A stretch of DNA of 33,246 bases. Origin: Alkalinema sp. RU_4_3 (GTDB lineage: Bacteria; Cyanobacteriota; Cyanobacteriia; Leptolyngbyales; Leptolyngbyaceae). The notes under the pieces are model-generated. The model was not told the DNA's origin, did no database searches, and saw only the letters and a program-made list of their open reading frames with translations. The translations under genes and the position numbers were made by a program. The stretch spans positions 1 to 33,246 of the forward strand of contig JAAUSA010000030.1 of the NCBI GenBank assembly GCA_012031975.1. Direction: 5' to 3'. This document shows, in pieces, positions 6,827 through 31,231 of the stretch (positions are counted from its first letter, which is position 1; the number at the start of each line of letters is the position of its first letter).

Positions 6827-6904
6827 TTACATCTCAGATGCTGTCTATCGATTAGAATATTACTAGCGTTTTACTGGAGCGATCGATCATCGAACATAGA
6901 AGCT

Positions 6905-7057
6905 ATGGATATTACAACAACGTTTAAACCTCAGGATCGCTATGAGTGGTGCGAGCGGTTGGGTTGTATTGTCCTGATTGATATTCGGATACCAGAGATG
7001 GATGGGGTGGTGGCCACGCGGGAAATTTGCCAAGGACCCAAGCCGCGATTTTTGTGA
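6905..7057 (+). pseudogene. Fragment of a response-regulator receiver domain
   Basis: An ATG frame of 50 codons contains IVLIDIRIPEMDGVVATREI, the phosphoacceptor aspartate strand and following loop of a NarL/CheY-type receiver domain. Only the middle of the domain is present: no N-terminal acidic pair precedes it, and the frame stops after PRFL. A second frame after the stop (IFVNSVLDAWDDEQW, about 7048-7094) may continue the domain with another frameshift. It is therefore a remnant. It lies antisense to the 3' end of the haemagglutinin-CHAT gene, whose last residues are read through its complement. Confidence 0.6.
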
Positions 7058-9501
7058 ATTCGGTGCTGGATGCTTGGGATGATGAACAATGGCCATAGCC
7101 TCAATACCAATTAGGGTAAAAGCGGCCCAATATTCCGGAGAAGGAAACAGCTGCTTGGTCTTGAGCATCGCCTGTCGGAGCGCCATGGCTTTGTCGGGCT
7201 GGGTGGAAAGGGATCGATAGAAATCCACCATCAAGCTAGATGTCGCCCGATCATTCACCTGCCAAAGAGACACCACCACATTGGCAGCCCCCACGGCTAA
7301 CCACGATCGCGATAGCCCTAACACGCCATCCCCTGTAATTTTCCCTCGCCCCGTATCGCAGGCACTTAGCACCACCAAATCGGCATTTAGTGATAATTTA
7401 AGCATTTCCTCTGCGTTAATAGTCCATCCTCTTGAGCGGAGGGGGCGAGGGCGATCGCCCCTAAAAGCGGATTCTGCTCATCAAAGGCCCCATGGGTTGC
7501 GAGGTGAATAATATTGGCCTGGGCAAGCTGGGGTTTAATCGTGGATTCTGTGGCAGCCTGGGCGAGTAAGGGTTGGACCTTGAGGAACTGGGCGATCGCC
7601 GTCGCTCTGGCCTCAGCACCGGGCAGGGGCGGTATGAACCTTCGGGCATGGGACTGGGATTGCCCACAATTAGCGTTTTATTGGATTGGGGCAACCGAGG
7701 TTTTGTCGGATTAATCCCTAAAAGCTGAATGGCTGGTACTGTGGTGATCGTATGTTTATCCACCATAAATTCGCCATTGGGATTCTGTAATGCCGCAAAG
7801 GGCACCAAAAAGAGCGAATCCTGGGGGACGAACACAATTTTTCCATTGGGATCGCTCGGGAGTAAATCCGCAATGGGGGCAATTAATAGTTGATGTAACT
7901 GCTGGAGCTGGTAGAACTGAGCTGTCTGGGGTTCTGCAATGTAAAGCTCAGCCATAGGCACAGGTTTTGAAAGTTTGATTTCGGGGTGGCTGAGCTTCGC
8001 CGTGCGATCGGCTAAATTGACCGAAACCACTTTGTAGGGTGCCCAACTGAGGGGGTCCCCCTGGCGGCGCACGGAACTACCAGGTTGCAAGGTGACTTCG
8101 GGCTTGCCGATCGTCAGCTTTCCTCGGGTGCCAATGGCGTTACGAGAACCTGTCACCATCTGAGCGAGGGACTCCGGGAGATTCGCAAGGGAGACCTGCC
8201 GAAACGCCACATTTCCTGTGGGCTGGACCACCCAAATAAACAGCATAGAATCTTTTGCCTCAGCGGTAAATTGCACCGAACCCCCATGGGTCGTTTCGAC
8301 GAATTGATCGCGCATGATCGAATATTGCACAATCGTCTGGTTTTGAGATTTGGCAATTTGACGGATTTGGTCGATCGTGGGGGGCAATATCGTCGGGACC
8401 GCCAGTGGGTTGCGGTGACGGGCGAGGAGTTCAATAAAGGCACGGGCACGGCTGCGTTCGGAGACTTCTAGGGCTGGGGCAAGTTTCTTTTGGGCAATGA
8501 GCGTTTCTTGGAGGTTACGATAGGTATTGAGTTGGGTTTCAAAGATCGAAACTTTGAAGGCATCATTGTTGCCGAGGCCCGCCCGGAGGGTTTCCCAAAC
8601 GGTAATGCCCTCCGTTAAAGTCGTCTCCGATTCCCCGAACCGGGACAACCGAAATAGCGAATCCCCCAGGTTGGTTAAGGTAATCCCTTCTCCCAAACGC
8701 GCCTGAAGTTCTCGCATCAGCGTTAGGCTTTGCTGGTGATAGCCTAATGCCGCACTGAAGTTGCGCTGGTAGCTAGAAGTCGTCCCAAGGCCGAGGAAAG
8801 CTTGGGCCTGCTGTAACTGATCGCCCAGGGTTTGGGCAATTTTCAAACTCTTCTGATAGTATTCTAGGGACTTAGGAAAATCCGCCCCATCGGCATAGGC
8901 ATTGCCTAAATTGCCGTAGGCCTGGGCTTCACCGTAGGCATCGCCAATGGTATTCGAGATGGCTAAACTTTGGTTTTGGTAGGCGATCGCCCCCGGAATT
9001 TTATGCTGGATCAAACTCGCATTGCCGAGATTGCGCAGAACGAGGGCACGCCATTGGGGCGCAATATTTTCCGGTAGGCGGGCTAGGGCTTGCTCGTAGA
9101 AATCGATCGCCTTAGTATAGTCACCCAAGGCACCATAGTTTGCCCCAATCCCGGCATAGGCCATGCCCAAGGTGACGGTATTGTGATCTGCCTTAGCAAT
9201 TTTGACCTGTTGCTGGTGGTATTCGATCGCCTGAAGGTAGTCCCCCAGCACGTAGGCAGTGGTGGCCAGATTGTTTAAGGCATAGGTTTGCAGCGTGGTT
9301 TGTTTGGCTTGTTGCAGGATATTTAATTGCTGGGCATAACATTCGCGGAGGGTTTGATATACTTTGCCGACGCGATCGGCGACTTTCCGCCTAGCAATCT
9401 GTTCGACTTGACCTTGGCAATTCGGCAGGCTAATCGACTGGCCATTGGCACCGGGGAGTTGGATGGTGCCAAAATCTGGGGTGGGATTGGAGCCGATGGG
9501 C

Positions 9502-9528
9502 CCAGGATTGCCAGGATTGCCAGGATTG
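9502..9528. repeat. Three 9-bp tandem repeats coding Pro-Gly-Asn
   Basis: CCAGGATTG occurs three times in a row. On the minus strand it encodes a (Gly-Asn-Pro) linker between the beta-helix part and the TPR part of the haemagglutinin-CHAT protein. Units of this type can vary in number by slippage without changing the frame. Confidence 0.75.
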
Positions 9529-12435
9529 CCGGGTAGATCCGTTGGATTCGGTACTGTTGGGTTAAAGGCGACCGGGGCGGGATTAGGTGTGTTAGGTGGC
9601 AGAATTAGCATGGCCGCTACGGTGGAGTTTCCAGGCCAAGGAAAGGGGGATGCGCCAAAATTGTTCCAGCTTAGACCGGGGTTAAAGGATCCAGACATGA
9701 CGGTACAACGACTCGCCCCGCAGCCCAGATTGAGCGGATTGAAAATAGGCAAATGCTCAGGCATGATCCGCCGCAAAATGCTGAGTTCACTAATCCGAGT
9801 GGTGGCCGGGAGGTAACTGGCCAGAATCCTATCCGTCCGATCGAGCTTTACCACCACTGGTAACGGATGGCTACGAAAATGACCGGGAATTAAATTATCG
9901 GGAATCTTAGGAATTGTAATATTGACTGGAATATTAACCACATTAGAAACAGCAATGCCATCGCTGGCCGTGAGCCTCAAGGCAGTCAAATTCCCCGTGG
10001 CATTTACGGGGGGCGTATAGGTGACGAGATCGCCGGGATTAATGGCTGTGCTTGAGACGATCGCCAAGCCATTACGCGTCAAAGTGCCGCCAGCAGTGGG
10101 GGTAATTTGGAGGCTGAGGTTATCGGCATCGGTATCTTGTACCAACGCTTGTAGCTGCGCAAAGGTGAATTGAATCGGTTGATTGAGGGCGGTGGGAGGA
10201 CTGGGCGATGGGGTAGAAATTGTCGGGGCGGTATTGTTAAACGTGATGTTAATATTTGGGGCGGCGGTGACCTGAGGCTGGGCAAAGGTATTTGTGGGTA
10301 AAATGGTGTTAGTTCCTGTGGTGATCGACCCAGCGGTGCCATTGGTGCTGGCGTTGCCTACGATAAAGGGTTGATTATTGGGGCCGCCGTTGTGGGTGAT
10401 GGCGATCGAACCCGGTATGGGGGTGCCCGGAAAAGTGGATTGAATGCTGACCGCCCGACTGTCGATGGTGGGGAGGATATTCGAGCCAGCCGTGCCTTGA
10501 ATGGTCCCATTGGCGAATAGATTCACCGCACCAGCCTGGGGAGAACCGAAGCCGGAGACTTGGGTGTCAATGGTCGAAAAAAGTAAGTTATTCCCCGCGA
10601 CTAATCGCACATCCCCGCCCAGTGAATTGTTCGCCCCAATCGCCGTGGTACTAATCGTCCCTATTTGAATATTGCTTCTAGCATTAATCGCCACATCGCC
10701 ACCAATCAATTGTCCATTAAAGAACAATTGTCCACTCTGGCTGGTTGTAATATCGCCTGTGGTGATCGCACCGGAGGCTAAATTCAAATTCGGTGAAAAT
10801 AAATTGGTTAACAATACCTGGCCATTATTGCTGGTGATGGCAATATTGCCGATCGAAATATTCGATCCCGTCGCTGCTGCATTCGTGTTTGGCACTCCGA
10901 CCAATCCCAGGGTCGAACCTGTAACCCCCGTGAGTGCAAACGCTGTGGTTCCCGCTCGAATATCTAGGGTTGGACGGACTGCACCGTCAATATTTAGGGT
11001 ACTACCATCGGACAGGGTTACCGTATCTTGCAATGCCGGGGAGCCAGCTCCAGTAATCGTCACATCGCCTGCGATCGTCACATTCCCCCCCGCCAAAATA
11101 TGCAGCGAGGACCCCGTATAGCTATTAAATGCCACATCGCCACTCGCCCGAATCACCGGATCCTTCGGGCTAAACAAATTACCTAAGCTCCCATCGGGCT
11201 GCTCAATGCGAAACGCGCCGCCGCTGAAAAATCGACTATCGCCAAGCACAGGGTTGAATGATCGCAATACCAAATCGCCGCTGGAGAATAAGCCACTACT
11301 CGGATGGGTGATGGCGGCAATATCGAGGTGGCGATCGCCCCCTAACAGCAAACGCCCACCGCTCTGGAGCATTAACGGTTGAGTTGCGGTATCACGCAGG
11401 CGCAGACTATCGCCCGCCAAGAGTTGCAAACCCCCCGTCGTGCGAATTTGGCTTTCGCTGAGGAGAAGATTGCGATCGGCTCGAAACAACGCATCCCCCG
11501 CCGATGCCTGCTTTACCACACCATCCCCCGAGTTTACAACCAGTCCCGAACCCGTTAATTGAACCGTGCCATCCGCCTGGGCCACCACCCCCGTGGAATG
11601 GGTCAAATCCCCCCCGTCACCAGTTGCGCCAGCGTCAGCGGCGAAAATAATGGTGAACCTGTCCGTGGCAACAGCTCCAACCCCAATACACCCCCGGCTG
11701 GACTCAAACGCAATCGATTGCTTCCCGGCACCGCCACCACGGTCAAACGACCGCCGGGAGCCGATAGACTGCCTGTGCTAACCACGGTCCCACCGAGTAG
11801 GGTGAGATCTTGACCGGGTTTAACCGCAAGGTTGCCGCTGTTGAAGATTGCCCCCGCATTCCCACGCCAGATCCAACTATCGGGATTGCCCAACAGCCGC
11901 GCATAATCGTTACTCCCAGCGCTTTGAAATAACTGATTGCCGAATCCCACGCCTGTGGCCGTTGTGGCCGCAAAGGCTGCGGGAAGATTCAACTGGACGT
12001 TTGGCCCAAATAAGATCCCGGCTGGATTAATCAAGTAAAGATTGGCATTGCCGCCAGTCATTTGGATCAGACCATTAATGTAGGACGCATCCCCCCCCGT
12101 CACGCGGCTCAACACATTCTGCAACTCCGGCGTCACCTGAAAATTCGCCACCTGATTCCCATCGAGCCCAAACCGAATAAAACTGTGAAATAGGTTGACA
12201 CCATCTGCCGATCGACTCCCCCCACTAATGTCCAGCCGATTCCCTTGCACCGTCACCTGAGTATTGGTGCTGTTGTCAGGAGCAATGGCCTGGGCCACCA
12301 GCATTTCCGGCGCTGCAATGCTAAGCGTAGAAGGCAGCGCTTTCGCGGGGGAAACCTCAACTGTTTGAATTTGGGGGGGCAATCCGGAGGTAATCATGGG
12401 ATTTATCCAAAAGTTTGAATTGTTCTAGCGTTGCC

Positions 12436-13372: not shown

Positions 13373-14695
13373 CCTCGCAAAAATAAGTTGGACATCTCAA
13401 ACCCCCTCTCTGGGATGAATTCGGTAATTCCACTCGCCATGGAACTTATCTTTCTCAAGTACGATGGTGCTAAATTCGGTCTCCCCAACTTTGATCCCAG
13501 TCTTGTAGTCGTGTTTATCCAATTTGACTCGAATCTTCAATCCTTGTTTGGTTGTGGTGTGGCTAATCAGATTCACGATAATGCTGCGGCTTTTTAGCGG
13601 CCGACCGCGCCAGTTCTGTGAAATATGACAAAACATCCGGTGCTCAATTTTATTCCACTTACTGGTCCCAGGGGGGAAGTGGCACACCTGAATCCTTAGG
13701 CCCAATGTATCTGCCAGTTCTTGCAATTTCAGTTTCCACAAACGAACGCGATTGCCATTGCTCCCACCACAATCTGCCGTAATCAACAGCTCGCTGGCCT
13801 CTGGGTAAAGGGGTTTTCCCATCTCATCCCACCATCTGCGAATGGTTTCAGTGGCTAACTCTGCGGTATCGTGACTGATTCCCACACTGACCCAGCCCTG
13901 ATTCTGTTGGAGATCATATACCCCGTAGGGTAAGGCTTTGCCTTGCACCTTATCGGGAAAATCATAGACATTAACCATCTCAGGCTGTCCTTTGGCATGC
14001 CACTCCTGACCCGCATTTTTATAGTTGCCGACCAGTTCCTTTTTCTTGGCATCCACAGAAATCACGGGCTGATGCCGCTGATGAAACGCTTTCACCTGCT
14101 TCGCAATATGACGAAACTGCTGGTCTCGATCTTCATGTTGCTTGCCCTCGTGAGTTTTGCGATTGGCTTGCAGACTATAACCCATCGAGTGGAGCAGCGT
14201 GCAAACGCTACGTTCACTCACCTCATGCCCGAGTTCCCCAAGGGCCTTGGCCAGATGACTCGTGCTCTTACAAGTCCATTGCAGGGGCGATTCAGGATCG
14301 CCACGGGTACTGGCTTCGACTAAAGCTTGCAAATCTTGGCTCAGGGTCGGGTCCAGTTCGGTTAGCCGTTTACGGCCTCCACCTGGGTGACGGATTCCGT
14401 CTGATTCAACCGCAACCTCCCCAGAGCCGATGTTAAGGTCTCTCATCCCACTGTAAATGGTCGTTCGGGATATCCCAGTCGCTGCAGAGACTTGACTCAC
14501 ACCGCCTCGACCTAATGCCGTCGATTCGGCTGCAGCCAGATTCGCCGCGTTTTCTCATTCAAGTAGGGTTCAAGCAGTTTATATTTGCTTCTAATCCGCG
14601 CAATTCCTGGGAAGTTACTCATAGGTGCTCAACCTCCGAATTCCTTAGTTCCATACTAGCGCAGGATTATAAGTGTTCAACTTATTTTTTCCAGG
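13373..14695 (-). mobile_element. ISAzo13-type insertion sequence
   Basis: A transposase gene fills the element. Terminal inverted repeats are visible: AAAAATAAGTTG at 13379-13390 matches CAACTTATTTTT at 14678-14689 perfectly, with weaker matches on both sides (CCT at 13373 and AGG at 14693). That gives an element of about 1.32 kb. I could not identify a clear target-site duplication, so the exact ends are uncertain by a few bases. It sits between the DUF928 and pentapeptide-repeat genes. Confidence 0.75.
13397..14622 (-). pseudogene. ISAzo13-family DDE transposase, one-base deletion near its N-terminus
   Basis: The main frame from 14500 gives 367 residues. A helix-turn-helix lies at the start (SQVSAATGISRTTIYSGM). 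The DDE catalytic residues are in SVDAKKKELVGNYKN, TADCGGSNGNR and KWNKIEHRMF. Upstream, an ATG at 14622 opens MSNFPGIARIRSKYKLLEPY and continues to RRIW, where one G is missing at 14536-14537. Restoring it joins both parts into 408 residues, continuing as AAAESTALGRGGVSQVS, exactly the family pattern. GGAGG lies 13 bases before the ATG. The enzyme would cut and paste the element. If the deletion is real the copy is probably dead; if it is a read error the element may be active. Confidence 0.85.
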
Positions 14696-20353: not shown

Positions 20354-22005
20354 ATGAACCCAGATTCCCCGCAGAAATTAAAGATGCTGATTGTGGACGA
20401 TGAGCCAGATAACTTAGATCTGCTCTATCGCACCTTTCGCTTGGACTTCCAGGTGTTGCGGGCCGAAAGTGCCCCGGCTGCCCTGGATTTGCTCGACAAG
20501 CAAGGGGAAGTCGCCATCATCATCTCCGACCAGCGGATGCCTGAAATGCTCGGTACCGAGTTTCTCAGCCGCACGGTCGATCGCTTTCCCGACACGATCC
20601 GTATTGTCCTAACGGCCTATACGGACGTTAAGGATCTCGTCGATGCGATCAACTCGGGCAAAGTCTTCAAATACATCACCAAGCCCTGGAACCAGCAGCA
20701 GCTCCAGGCCGTGATCCAGCAGGCCGCCGAGACCTATCGCATGGTCAAGCAGCGCACGGATGTGTTGCAGCGCGCCCTGCGGCGGGAATCGGTGTTTAAT
20801 GCGATCACCACGGCGATTCGGGGCTCCCTCGACTACGCCAGCATTTCCCAGACCATTGTGCAGACCCTGGGTGAAAGTTTTAAGGCCGATCGCGGCATTC
20901 TCCACCCCGTCGAGGATTTCCAAATCCTGCGCAAGTCCTTTTCCTACAATATGCCCGAGACCGAAACGCCCCTGGTGGCCTCGGAGGCGGTGACCCAGAG
21001 CGCCCTGGCCGCATCCCAGCAGGCCCCACAAATTAAGGCGGTCTACCAAACGGACAGTGACACCCACCATTGGTGGTGCCCTTCCAGGACCAGAGCCAGC
21101 TTTTGGGACTGCTGGATTTGCAGCGATCGGGCAAGGCCCGCTCCTGGGGCAATGACGAAACCCAATTCATTGGCGAAGTGGCCCAGCAGGCGGCCCTGGC
21201 CATGTCCCAGGCCAAGCTCTACCTGCGCACCCAGCAGCAGGCGGAGAAGATGCGCGCTGAGCTAGAGGTGGCCCGCCAAATTCAAAACAACCTGCTGCGC
21301 CAGAGCCTGCCCACCCTCGATCAGATGAAGGTGCAGGCCTGCTGTCAGCCCGCCCGCGAAGTCGGCGGCGACTTCTTCGAGGTCTATGCCCATCCCCAGG
21401 GCGATCTGTGGCTGGCCGTGGGCGATGTCTCCGGCAAGGGCGTCCCGGCGGCGCTGTTCATGGCCAGTGCGATTTCCGTGCTGCGCCGGGAACTGGCCCA
21501 GGAAATTTCCCCCGATCCCGACGAGGTGATGCGCAACCTCAATCGCATCCTGCTCGAAGACCTAATGAGCACCAACTGCTTCATCACCATGGTGATCGCC
21601 CGCTACAACCAGCAGACCCAAACCCTCACCTACGCCAACGCGGGACACCTCTACCCCATGGTCTGGTCCGGCTACCATCCCGCCGACCAGCAGGAACCCC
21701 AATACCTCAAAACCCGAGGCATTCCCCTGGGCATCCTGCCCCAATGGAAGGCCAAGTCCGGGGAATGTCAGGTCAAGCCTGGGGAAATCTTCCTGCTGAC
21801 TAGCGATGGCGTCACGGAAGCGACCGTCAAGTCCGGGGGCGATAGCAACATTCCCGGCTCCACCTTCTTGCAACAGGATGGCCTCTGGCAGCTCCTGCGC
21901 CAGCACCCCGAATCCTTCGACCTGCAAGACCTACTTGCCCAAGTCCGAGCGCAAACCACCGCCCAGGATGACGACCAGACCATGCTCTCCCTGGAGGTTC
22001 TGTAA
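20354..22005 (+). pseudogene. Response regulator with GAF-like and PP2C/SpoIIE phosphatase domains, one-base deletion
   Basis: Restoring one C in the CCC run at 21063-21065 gives 550 residues. A receiver domain occupies about 10-125: the acidic pair in LIVDDEPDN, phospho-Asp in IISDQRMPE, and a KYITKPW switch loop. A linker helix follows, then a GAF-like sensor domain (about 150-290) and a PP2C_SIG/SpoIIE-type phosphatase (about 315-548) with VGGDFFEV, VGDVSGKGVPAALFMA, NAGHLYPM and LTSDGVTEA. Such RsbU-like enzymes dephosphorylate an anti-sigma antagonist in response to phosphorylation of the receiver. The next gene, an RsbW-like kinase, starts 3 bases after the stop, so the two are co-expressed and probably work in one partner-switching pathway. 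All catalytic motifs are intact, which argues for a read error rather than decay. Confidence 0.85.
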
Positions 22006-26957: not shown

Positions 26958-29667
26958 CTATTTTTCTTTTTGAAAGGTTTGGAAGTCCTGCCAAGCACCC
27001 ACTAAATTGCCCTGCATGAGTTTGGCGATCGCCTTAAGTCCCCTCACTTCTTTCCCCGGATTGGGCTGCTTTTCGGCGGTTTCGATCGCCTTCTGGGCCT
27101 CTCCCGGTCGAAGGTCCGCGAGGTTGACAAAGGCTAGGTAGGCGTTTGCGTTGGGGTTTTGCGGATCGAGTTGGGCGACGGTTTGGAAGGCGGCGATCGC
27201 GCCCCCCACGTTGCGACGGAGCACCTGGGTGAAGGCGTAGGCGTAGGCGTATTGTTTGTTTTTGGGGTCTTCCTTGAGGCGGTAGGCTAGGCTTTCCTGG
27301 GCCTGGATCAGGTAGTTTTGCGTCGGATCGTAGAGGTTGAGGCGGGCCACTTGGTCGAAGAGCTTTTCGAGGGCTGTGACGCCCTTGGGCAGTTCGGTGG
27401 CCATCAGACGGAGTTTTGTAATCGGATCGAGTTCGGGGGTGGGCTGGGGTTTGGCGGCGGGGCTGATTCCCTCCGGACGGTCTTTGACCATGGCGATCGT
27501 GATGTCGGGGGGAACGAGCGGATAGATGTCACCCGTGGTGCGGTTGAGGTAGAGGGCTTCGAGGCTGTAGTTGCCTGTGGCGTTGCTGGGGGGCAGCATG
27601 GCGAGGGTTTCGTTGACTTGGTAGAGGGTTTTGGGTTCTAGGTTGGTCAGTTCGCCCAGGCCCAAACCATGGTCATGGAGCCAGTGCCCCTTGCCGCTGG
27701 CGCCCACCCAGCGCAGAAGCAGGAGACCGGACTGCAAGTCTGCGCCGCTGCCTGCCCACTTGTAGGTGACGGGGATGGGTTTTCCGGGAGCGGCGGTCCC
27801 TGGCACCACCACCTGTTCGAGCCGCAGGAGTTGTTCGTCGCCCCATTGGGCTCCGACGACGGGGGTGACGGTGACGGTGGGCGTAATCCGGCGGTAGAGG
27901 TTTAGATCGCTCTGGTCGGGGAGTTTCCAGGTTTGTTCGAGGCGGAACTCCTTGCTGGTGGTGATGGCTTTGGTCAGGGATTCAAGGGCTTGGGGCTTGC
28001 GGATGGCGCCCTGTTCTCCGGTTTTGAGCAGGTACCAGGGCAGCGATCGACTGTCGGACCAGACCTGCTGATCGCGGGTGCCCACTTGGCGGCCATAGAC
28101 TTGGAAGTTGGCGAGGGTGCCGAAGTAGTTGAAATTATGCTGGTTGAGTTCGGGGATGGAGGGCAGGACCCCGACGTTTTGGCGGAGGTTGGGTTGGGTT
28201 TGGGCGATGGTGGCGATCGCATCTTGCAGGTGCCAATTCTGCGGTGGTTTTGCCATATGGGAGACGGCCTTACCGGGCAGGAGCGGGAATAGGTTTGACA
28301 CCATTAACAAACCCATTAATCCGAGTATCCCTAAACGCAGGAAGGCGAAGGGACGCGGAAACAACAGTAAACCCTGGGCCAGCAAAACTGACAATGCTGG
28401 CAATAATGGAGCGATATAGCGTGTGTCTTTGTTGGGGTTAAGACTGAACAACAGATAGCCCCCGATTAGAAATACTAAAAGCCAATTGCGCGATCGCGCC
28501 AATTTTGAAATAACTTACGTCGTTGTTCCCGACTAGAAAAATTGAGGTTTTCCAAACGATTGCCCCGTTCAAAAACACGTTTGGAATAAAGTAATAAACC
28601 AATTAAACCCGCAACTAATAGAGGAATTGAAACCTGCTGAGAAATCTCCTTTAAATAATAGGTCCAAGCCGCGATCGTATTAACTGCTGGATCGCCCTCA
28701 GCGATCGCACTTTGCACCGTCGCCCGTTCTCCGGAGGTAAGAATCAACAGCCAATTCGTCCGGTACCAAGGATAGGCAATCGCCACGCTCAAACACAAAC
28801 CCACAAATAGCTGTGCGATCCTGCCCCACTGACGTTTAAGCAATAGGGAAACAGCTGTCCACAACAGCGGCATAAACAGGAAGAAAATAATAGTTTGTTT
28901 TGTCAACAGTCCCAGTCCAAACGCTAGCCCAAACGTCATCACCTTCAACCAGGGATTACTAAAAATATTACTGAAACCCTCACCGATCGCCTCCAACCGT
29001 TTTGATATTCTCACCAGCCACCGAGGCTGTCTAAGGCGTTGGGGCGTTTCTTGCTTGGTGGGTAGGAGAGCGATCGTCTCCTGAAGCAATTGCAACTGGG
29101 TCTTCCCGGTTTCGTCTAGCGGTGGGAGTTCGGGTGTAATGGCTGTTTCGCTCCATACCGCCGCCTTCCCCTTCGGCTGATACCAAGCTGTCAATAGCGC
29201 AAAGCAGAGGGTTACCATCGTCGCCAGGGATAGTCCAGCAAAAACTGATGGCGCAGGGGATAGAGCCCCGGCGCCGCCATGGCCAGTCCCGCTGCCCAAA
29301 GCCCCACCACCGGGCTGAATAAGCTTCGCCCCAACCCATACAGCGACAGAATCATCACGGCACTAAACAGCAGGTGAATCATCATGGCCTGATCCCCCCC
29401 AGTCCCCACGAGGCCCATTACCGCTGCCGTCACGACATACACTAAGGGTGGAATTTTCGAAGACAGTTGCCAAAGACCCACCCACCAATCTTGATTGAGC
29501 CAATCGGGCTGCTTGAGGGCCTGCCAGTAGTTCATGGCTCCGGTGAGGTAGTCGGCCTGGTCCCAGTCGGGCATGCCATGGTCTAGCTGGAGCCAGATGC
29601 GATCTAGAGCGGCTCCGAGGGTCCAGAGCAGCAGCAGTATCAGGGGATGGCGGAGAGATGCAGGCAC
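26958..29667 (-). pseudogene. GT39/PMT-like membrane glycosyltransferase with helical-repeat tail, two one-base deletions
   Basis: Three frames (29667-29212, 29299-28475, 28502-26958) join into 903 residues when one base is restored at 29227-29229 (DYPLATMVTL) and one at 28501-28502 (QNLARSRNWLL). The first part has a conserved acidic loop after the first membrane helix (MPDWDQADYLTGAMNYWQ), as in lipid-linked-sugar glycosyltransferases of the PMT/ArnT type. Many membrane segments follow to about residue 480, then a soluble domain. The C-terminal 110 residues contain TPR-like helices (AYAYAFTQVLRRNVGGAIAAF, then LDPQNPNANAYLAF). The enzyme would use a polyprenyl-phosphate sugar on the periplasmic side; acceptor unknown. 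The 235-base upstream gap shows no gene. Confidence 0.8.
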
Positions 29668-29902: not shown

Positions 29903-31231
29903 TTAACTGTCAAGCCCCAACCTCGATCGCACAATCTTCCCCTGCCCCGTCCTAGGAATTGCTTCTACAGCCACCCACCGCTTCGGCAACTTCGGCCCAC
30001 TCAAAAGCGCCGCGATCGCCCCCTGTAATTCCTCCACCGTCTGACTCGAAACATAAAATGCCACTACGATCTCTCCCCAATTCTCATCGGGCACCCCAAT
30101 GACGCAAACATCCTCGACTAAACCTGTTGATCGAATCGCCGCCTCAATTTCGGCAGGATACAGATTCTCCCCACCTGAAATAATCTTCTGACTATTGCGA
30201 CCTACAATATGTAGACTGTGCTGCTCATCAAAATAACCAATATCATCGAGTTCCAACGGCCCCGGTGGAAAATAACCCCGCATCAGCGATCGCGCCTCCA
30301 CAGTCACCAACCCCGAAACTCCCGTCGGCAATGGTTTTCCTTCCGTATCCCGAATGGTAATCACAGCATGGGGCAAAACCATTCCACAACCCGTCTGACC
30401 CCGAAGAAACGCCTCCGGCTTCAGCGTTGCCACCTGCGATGCCGTTTCCGTCATGCCGTAGGTGGGGGCGATCGCTAACCAACGCGATCGCCCTTCCGCC
30501 AGCAAGCTCTCCCAAGCCGGAGCCCCCCCTAGAAGAATGGTCCTAAACTGCGATAGTTCTGGGTAGTTCAACAACCGCTGTAATTGCGTCGGCACCAGGG
30601 ATAGGAAAAACCGATCGCGATCGATCTTAGGAAACACCCCCGCTTCCAGCGCCTTCCAATCGCAAATCGCCAACCTTCCAGAGGTCATCAGCGATCGCCA
30701 CAACTGCATCAATCCACTCACATGATAAAGCGGCAACACACAGCAGGAATTGATGCGATCGACCCCAAAATACTCCCGAAACCCCTCCACCGAAGCCGTC
30801 AACGTCTCCCAAGAATGGATCGCAAACCGAATCTGCCCAGAAGTTCCTCCCGTTGGGATTAGAATATCTCCGCCCCCCAACCCCCCAATACTGGGGGGCT
30901 TCCGAGCCAAGCTTGTTTCAAAGTCCCCCAGTATTGGGGGATTTAGGGGGCCAGCTATCCCAAACACCACATCCGGCCTCACCAACCCAGCAACCTGCTC
31001 CCACTCCTGCTGCCCCCACCGAGGATTGGTCAAAATCACCACAGCATTCTTCGACACCGCTGCAATAAATGCTGCGATAAACTTTAAGGGATCGGCTTCA
31101 GCAATTAAAACAATATCACTGGCGTTTATTCTCAAACAACAGCGATCGATCGCCCTCAGCAATTCCCGATGATCCAGACCATAGAGCCAGTCATCTTGGA
31201 AACTAGATAGGCGATCGCGCAGATTAATCAT
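29903..31231 (-). CDS. menE: 2-succinylbenzoate-CoA ligase (MenE) carrying an in-frame palindromic repeat
   Basis: 442 residues from the ATG at 31231. MenE activates o-succinylbenzoate with ATP and CoA in phylloquinone/menaquinone synthesis. The adenylate-forming motifs are present: ILIPTGGTSGQIRFAIHSW (the P-loop-like A3 motif), APTYGMTETASQ, GYFDEQHSLHIVGRNSQKII and the C-terminal Lys region in RTGQGKIVRS. The ATG overlaps the stop of the upstream gene by ATGA, a coupling signal, so I prefer it to the longer frame beginning at 31294. About 27 residues encoded by 30872-30952 (positions about 94-120) are not part of the usual family and come from a palindromic repeat that keeps the frame open. 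Confidence 0.88.
   Translation of the reverse strand: MINLRDRLSSFQDDWLYGLDHRELLRAIDRCCLRINASDIVLIAEADPLKFIAAFIAAVSKNAVVILTNPRWGQQEWEQVAGLVRPDVVFGIAGPLNPPILGDFETSLARKPPSIGGLGGGDILIPTGGTSGQIRFAIHSWETLTASVEGFREYFGVDRINSCCVLPLYHVSGLMQLWRSLMTSGRLAICDWKALEAGVFPKIDRDRFFLSLVPTQLQRLLNYPELSQFRTILLGGAPAWESLLAEGRSRWLAIAPTYGMTETASQVATLKPEAFLRGQTGCGMVLPHAVITIRDTEGKPLPTGVSGLVTVEARSLMRGYFPPGPLELDDIGYFDEQHSLHIVGRNSQKIISGGENLYPAEIEAAIRSTGLVEDVCVIGVPDENWGEIVVAFYVSSQTVEELQGAIAALLSGPKLPKRWVAVEAIPRTGQGKIVRSRLGLDS
30872..30952. repeat. 81-bp palindromic interspersed repeat (MITE-like) inside menE
   Basis: The left arm (30872-30898: G, C6, AA, C6, AATACT, G6) is the imperfect reverse complement of the right arm (30925-30952: CCCCCAGTATTGGGGG then ATTTAGGGGGCC). 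An AAGCTT palindrome lies in the middle. The unit resembles C/G-run palindromes scattered in many filamentous cyanobacterial genomes. Its length is a multiple of three and it has no stop in the menE frame. Confidence 0.85.

What the first reader, a model, noticed from the sequence alone, without database searches (positions are those of the whole stretch)
30872..30952. Palindromic repeat inserted in frame within menE, next to the active-site motif
An 81-bp near-palindrome adds about 27 residues rich in Pro and Gly (NPPILGD ... KPPSIGG) just before ILIPTGGTSG, the nucleotide-binding motif. The frame is kept and the rest of menE is intact, so the insert seems tolerated as a surface loop. Protein-coding palindromic elements are well known in Rickettsia; a cyanobacterial case in an essential quinone gene is unusual.
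Basis: partly seen in the sequence, partly recalled or inferred. Interest (0 to 1): 0.7.

Follow-up and report, generated by a model that had tools for sequence, protein, structure and literature searches.

The report
Mobile palindrome forms an enzyme loop
In a cyanobacterium, a short DNA palindrome present in dozens of copies has become an in-frame, probably floppy loop of the vitamin K-pathway enzyme MenE; other cyanobacteria have independently put repeats into the same loop, so this is a new cyanobacterial example of a phenomenon best known from Rickettsia.

Summary
An 81-bp inverted repeat (30872-30952) lies inside an intact menE (29906-31231, minus strand), in frame, encoding residues 94-120, two codons before the A3 motif ILIPTGGTSG. 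It is one of about 20 full and 20 or more partial copies in the genome. The copies form REP-like doublets, and each arm fits the published definition of a G/C-rich intrastrand-triplex motif; these are the only two such sites in the window.

Other copies sit in the same reading frame in a ThyX intein, a 5-oxoprolinase, and several signal-peptide or N-terminal regions, so in-frame residence is recurrent.

The interpretation needs correction. The palindrome nearly replaces the native linker and does not lengthen an otherwise normal protein. At least three relatives carry members of the same family in this linker, and others carry unrelated palindromes.

Best reading: a non-autonomous REP/MITE-like repeat, tolerated because the loop is disordered. 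It resembles Rickettsia palindromic elements but is a separate family. No RAYT-type transposase was found; the mover is unknown.

The parts
29906..31231 (-). menE, o-succinylbenzoate--CoA ligase, 442 aa (ATG start at 31231; stop at 29903-29905); only close MenE match in the genome
   Evidence: other own-genome ANL hits are about 26-32% identical over their ligase domains
30872..30952 (+). 81-bp REP-like doublet (inverted repeat), encoding MenE aa 94-120 on the minus strand
30882..30897 (+). left inner arm CCCCCAATACTGGGGG, pairs with 30925-30940 (16 bp) and is also self-complementary
   Evidence: covariation of the long hairpin
30925..30940 (+). right inner arm CCCCCAGTATTGGGGG
30924..30950 (+). 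intrastrand-triplex motif TCCCCC-AGTATT-GGGGGA-TTT-AGGGGG (6-nt stems, loops 6 and 3)
   Evidence: by the stem/loop rule quoted (PMC4666352)
30873..30898 (-). intrastrand-triplex motif CCCCCC-AGTATT-GGGGGG-TT-GGGGGG (6-nt stems, loops 6 and 2)
30866..30958 (-). whole MenE linker, aa 92-122 (IAG...GGD), nearly all of it element-derived
   Evidence: Alignments; flank comparison of copies
30836..30865 (-). A3 motif ILIPTGGTSG (aa 123-132), conserved in all compared MenE

Best explanation
A non-autonomous palindromic repeat (two REP-like stem-loops in inverted orientation, about 81 bp, part of a cyanobacterial family with core CCCCC-N6-GGGGGATTTAGGGGG) inserted into menE at the linker between the N-terminal subdomain and the A3 motif. 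The copy is 27 codons long and stop-free in this frame. The linker is naturally disordered and very variable in cyanobacterial MenE, so the product still folds and the insertion was kept, while the native linker was largely lost. Shown: repeat family, frame, linker variability, independent occupation of the same loop in relatives, similar in-frame copies in other genes. Inferred: that MenE is translated and active with the loop; that the native linker was lost at or after insertion; that the element moves as a hairpin-bearing unit through a trans-acting enzyme not identified here.
For: Multi-copy family, up to 96% identity between copies. Long hairpin supported by covariation between arms: 3 pairs with changes on both sides, score 0.059 against 0.034 shuffled (2 of 500 shuffles as high); the local hairpins show none. 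In-frame copies elsewhere: inside a ThyX intein, 374-aa ORF spanning intein and both flanks; 5-oxoprolinase, whose orthologs (about 69% identical) have an unrelated 22-24-aa linker at that place; n-regions of signal peptides in three secreted proteins (C86, C159, C233). MenE linker: median 28 aa, 5-95% range 19-68. In relative G029 the linker minus the element is 19 aa, the usual element-free length. Perfect stems of 10 bp or more are enriched in linkers over other menE segments: 6 of 85 against 2 of 255, p 0.004. Model: coil with pLDDT below 50 at aa 98-111.
Against: No close relative with an empty site is held (nearest MenE about 54-57% identical), so the insertion event is not seen directly. 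No target-site duplication was recognised by eye. No Y1/RAYT transposase in the genome. The assembly has many frameshifts (menB, thyX and dnaB ORFs are broken), so frames of some other copies are uncertain. The two 5-oxoprolinase halves lie on two contigs joined only by a 41-nt identical overlap at the repeat.
Confidence: 0.78

Rival explanations
1. The repeat is an insertion that inactivated or weakened menE; the open frame is fortuitous and the gene is decaying or dispensable.
For: The element abuts the nucleotide-binding motif; menE mRNA would carry a very stable hairpin; several genes of this assembly, menB included, show stops in frame.
Against: Conserved MenE positions kept over 442 aa with no stop or frameshift; it is the only close MenE match in the genome; relatives with intact menE carry elements in the same loop; the menB and other breaks look like homopolymer indels of the draft.
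Confidence: 0.1
2. The palindrome was kept because it does something: as an mRNA hairpin or DNA triplex it tunes menE expression, or the Pro/Gly loop adjusts the enzyme.
For: Very stable RNA fold, z -6; two intrastrand-triplex motifs, one per strand, the only ones in the window.
Against: The same element sits in unrelated genes and intergenic sites; other MenE use unrelated loops of similar length, which argues against a specific function.
Confidence: 0.1
3. It is a REPIN moved by a RAYT (IS200-like Y1 transposase).
For: Doublet of inverted REP-like units plus singlets, as in REPINs (PMC3116915).
Against: No PF01797 match in a 97%-complete genome although the search rang in 5 of 14 control genomes; no GTAG tag; many copies in genes, whereas REPINs are described as extragenic.
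Confidence: 0.05

Closest known systems
Rickettsia palindromic elements (RPE) and Wolbachia palindromic elements
   Same: Dispersed palindromes found within ORFs without destroying the frame, encoding surface-exposed insertions (PMC3767692, PMC2229807); the possibility of hotspots has been raised there too.
   Different: No sequence relation known; doublet with G/C-rich triplex arms, 81 bp against 100-150 bp; cyanobacterial; in MenE the element replaces most of the native linker.
REP elements inside ORFs, GTAG and CGTC families (PMC3733652)
   Same: REP dimers encoding 20-30 aa within genes in several phyla; cyanobacterial REP families are listed there.
   Different: This family lacks the GTAG/CGTC tag and no tyrosine transposase was found.
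G/C-rich intrastrand triplex motifs (TM/ITxF, PMC4666352)
   Same: Both arms satisfy stem 6 nt or more and loops 1-6 nt; the paper reports high numbers in Anabaena, Nostoc and Microcystis.
   Different: That work examined non-coding context and genome instability in E. coli; in-frame coding copies were not found described in it.
REPINs (PMC3116915)
   Same: Inverted doublet forming a hairpin, with singlets beside it.
   Different: REPINs are extragenic and tied to RAYT; neither holds here.
Cyanobacterial small dispersed repeats (Elhai et al. 2008) and Nezha MITE
   Same: Short mobile repeats in cyanobacteria (known from citations; full text not held).
   Different: Sequence comparison could not be made.

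Membership tests
Rickettsia palindromic element type (protein-coding palindrome) | dispersed multi-copy palindrome | tested here: met
Rickettsia palindromic element type (protein-coding palindrome) | copies in frame within conserved genes | tested here: met
   menE, ThyX intein, 5-oxoprolinase
Rickettsia palindromic element type (protein-coding palindrome) | sequence homology to RPE-1 to RPE-7 | not tested
   RPE sequences were not fetched; phylum and base composition make it unlikely
Rickettsia palindromic element type (protein-coding palindrome) | host protein still made and active | not testable with these tools
   needs proteomics or assay
GTAG/CGTC-tagged REP | unpaired GTAG or CGTC next to the stem | tested here: not met
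   No such tag in the copies or consensus
REPIN | inverted doublet forming a hairpin | tested here: met
REPIN | associated RAYT (PF01797) | tested here: not met
REPIN | extragenic location | tested here: not met
Intrastrand triplex motif (ITxF class) | three-block stem of 6 nt or more, loops 1-6 nt | tested here: met
   rule
MITE of an insertion sequence | target-site duplication and cognate transposase ends | tested here: inconclusive
   No duplication seen by eye in copies; the IS-like element at 13373-14695 has unrelated ends; other IS of the genome not examined
MenE (TIGR01923/PRK07445) | match to the family with conserved ligase motifs | tested here: met
   scores lie below the curated cut-offs, but MenE models are the best matches by far

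The most novel reading that the evidence does not exclude
A phylum-wide cyanobacterial palindromic family that repeatedly supplies whole interdomain linkers of housekeeping enzymes (MenE, 5-oxoprolinase, inteins) in one preferred reading frame, replacing native linker sequence and not merely adding to it, with the MenE linker as a recurrent landing site for several unrelated repeat families.
Probability: 0.25. Interest if true: 0.65.

Novelty: new member of a known kind. Interest (0 to 1): 0.46.

Why it matters
It extends in-frame protein-coding palindromes to cyanobacteria with a named enzyme and clear homologs. It offers a natural experiment: one loop of one enzyme occupied independently by the same and by unrelated repeats across a phylum, so tolerance, fitness cost and the mobilising enzyme can be tested in culturable, often transformable organisms. 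It also warns that runs such as GPLNPPILGD and SKSPxIGGFRG in cyanobacterial proteins are repeat-derived, not functional motifs.

Tried and rejected
RAYT/Y1 transposase: none. The IS-like element in the window as source: ends unrelated, CCTCGCAAAAATAAGTTGGACA. Rfam: only sub-threshold microRNA-like matches caused by the hairpin, rejected. Local hairpins as the conserved fold: no covariation, unlike the long hairpin. DnaB intein copy: in frame on one side only, with frameshifts in the draft, so not counted as firm. C221 (79 bp) and C173 (82 bp) would join two halves of a gene only if a G-run indel is assumed, so not counted. CbiB copy (C358:2475): lies before the Pfam domain, may be mere upstream sequence. 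Elhai et al. 2008: not held. Empty-site comparison within the species or genus: no such genome held.

Full report
What is there. The 81 bp at 30872-30952 form a strong hairpin inside an uninterrupted menE on the minus strand. The element is exactly 27 codons long and its boundaries fall on codon boundaries (aa 94-120). The motif ILIPTGGTSG follows at aa 123. The rest of MenE keeps the invariant positions of 14 and 25 aligned cyanobacterial relatives.

It is a repeat family. The own genome holds 53 BLAST matches to the 81 bp, some of them the same copy matched on both strands. Reading them with flanks gives about 20 full doublets and 20 or more partial or single arms. Each arm is itself a stem-loop, and the two arms are inverted. 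The right arm occurs 28 times (up to 3 mismatches) against none for the reversed pattern. In 19 aligned copies the long hairpin between arms shows changes on both sides at 3 pairs and a covariation score of 0.059 against 0.034 for shuffles (2 of 500 as high); the local hairpins show none. Relatedness of copies limits the weight of that test. Scanned by the rule of the ITxF paper (quoted), with exact stems only, the window contains just two intrastrand triplex motifs, one on each strand, and they are the two arms of this element.

The core CCCCC-N6-GGGGGATTTAGGGGG recurs in 26 of 292 genomes sampled over the phylum, up to 74 times in one, with control counts near zero. The whole element is matched in 33 of 42 genomes of the family. 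So the family is widespread, though patchy.

Other in-frame copies. Reading all copies in six frames, the best supported genic copies use the same frame, GPLNPPILGDFExxLARKSPSIGGLGG. The clearest are: (a) a ThyX intein, where one 374-aa ORF runs through extein, intein, element and extein, and the element lies within the Pfam intein match; (b) a 5-oxoprolinase split between contigs C236 (Hydantoinase_A) and C75 (Hydant_A_C, Hydantoinase_B), which overlap by 41 identical bases at the repeat; orthologs about 69% identical have an unrelated 22-24-aa linker there; (c) secreted proteins in which the element lies before or within the signal-peptide n-region (C86, C159, C233). The preferred frame has a simple possible reason: many copies share a conserved flank (consensus ...GGGGGCCAGCCATTG), and by inspection this flank carries stops in the plus frames, so the long form is open in only one frame. 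That last point is inference.

The MenE linker. In 91 MenE sequences (87 distinct linkers) the stretch between xPDxxxG and (I/V)xIPTGG is highly variable: median 28 aa, 5-95% range 19-68; the window has 31; 38 of 86 others are at least as long. This does not make the palindrome unreal: it shows the loop is free to vary. Relatives G029 and G021 (one genus, possibly one ancestral insertion) and Phormidesmis priestleyi carry members of the same repeat family in this loop (90-94% identity to the right arm over 32-35 nt); the P. priestleyi copy is read in the opposite orientation. Atlanticothrix silvestris carries an unrelated repeat found over 40 times in its genome; Fischerella, Microcoleus and Scytonema carry other hairpins. 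Exact stems of 10 bp or more occur in 6 of 85 linkers against 2 of 255 equal-length segments of the same genes (p 0.004). In G029 the linker without its element is 19 aa, the usual short length, so that one is a clean insertion; in the window only about 4 non-element residues remain, and in the 5-oxoprolinase also about 4, so here the element has taken the native linker's place. Whether by loss at insertion or later deletion cannot be told.

Structure. AlphaFold2 with 26 sequences gives mean pLDDT 88.9, with a coil of pLDDT below 50 at aa 98-111, within the element, and no helix or strand of any length from 97 to 122. This fits a disordered loop; it does not show activity. Bacillus MenE (5x8f, 5buq) has a shorter stretch there.

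How it spreads. Copies up to 96% alike suggest recent multiplication. No Y1/RAYT transposase gene was found, no GTAG/CGTC tag, no target duplication seen, and the IS-like element in the window has different ends. The mover is unknown; a trans-acting enzyme recognising the hairpin is the likeliest guess.

Comparison. In its effect it works like RPEs (PMC3767692, PMC2229807) and like REP dimers encoding 20-30 aa inside genes (PMC3733652). It is not a tagged REP or a REPIN by their definitions. Its arms belong formally to the triplex motifs already counted in cyanobacteria (PMC4666352). Hence a new member of a known kind; the recurrent occupation of one enzyme loop is the freshest part.

Caveats. 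The draft assembly has frameshifts at homopolymers (menB with stops; thyX and dnaB), so frame statements for other copies are less firm than for menE, which is intact. No close relative is held. That MenE is essential was not tested.

Noticed in passing
window 6887-11606; 20354-22005; 28475-29667: Pairs of overlapping or adjacent ORFs that read like one gene split by a frameshift (CHAT-domain protein, response regulator with phosphatase, membrane glycosyltransferase); with broken menB, thyX and dnaB elsewhere this suggests homopolymer indels in the assembly.
   Followed up: partly
window 13373-14695: IS-like element: a transposase ORF (13397-14500, looks ISAzo13-like from its sequence, not tested) between 22-bp inverted repeats; ends unrelated to the palindrome.
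   Followed up: partly
L164 (G031), 5-oxoprolinase: In another genome the linker between the Hydantoinase A and B parts holds QSPPSQGGFRGIE, which looks like a half element in a second position of the same enzyme.
   Followed up: no
L039 (C312) 1-163 and L074 (C358) end: Two contig ends share sequence and seem to belong to one secreted-protein gene with two copies of the element near its N-terminus.
   Followed up: partly
L031, L027, L110, L129 MenE linkers: Linkers built of tandem repeats (GLFEIDxSLE, ESGxG, GLGTGDW, YSLEKS), further signs that this loop accepts repeats of many kinds.
   Followed up: partly
L061 (C223), dnaB: DnaB intein whose linker holds a diverged copy of the element; the draft has frameshifts at the Walker A region and before the element.
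   Followed up: partly
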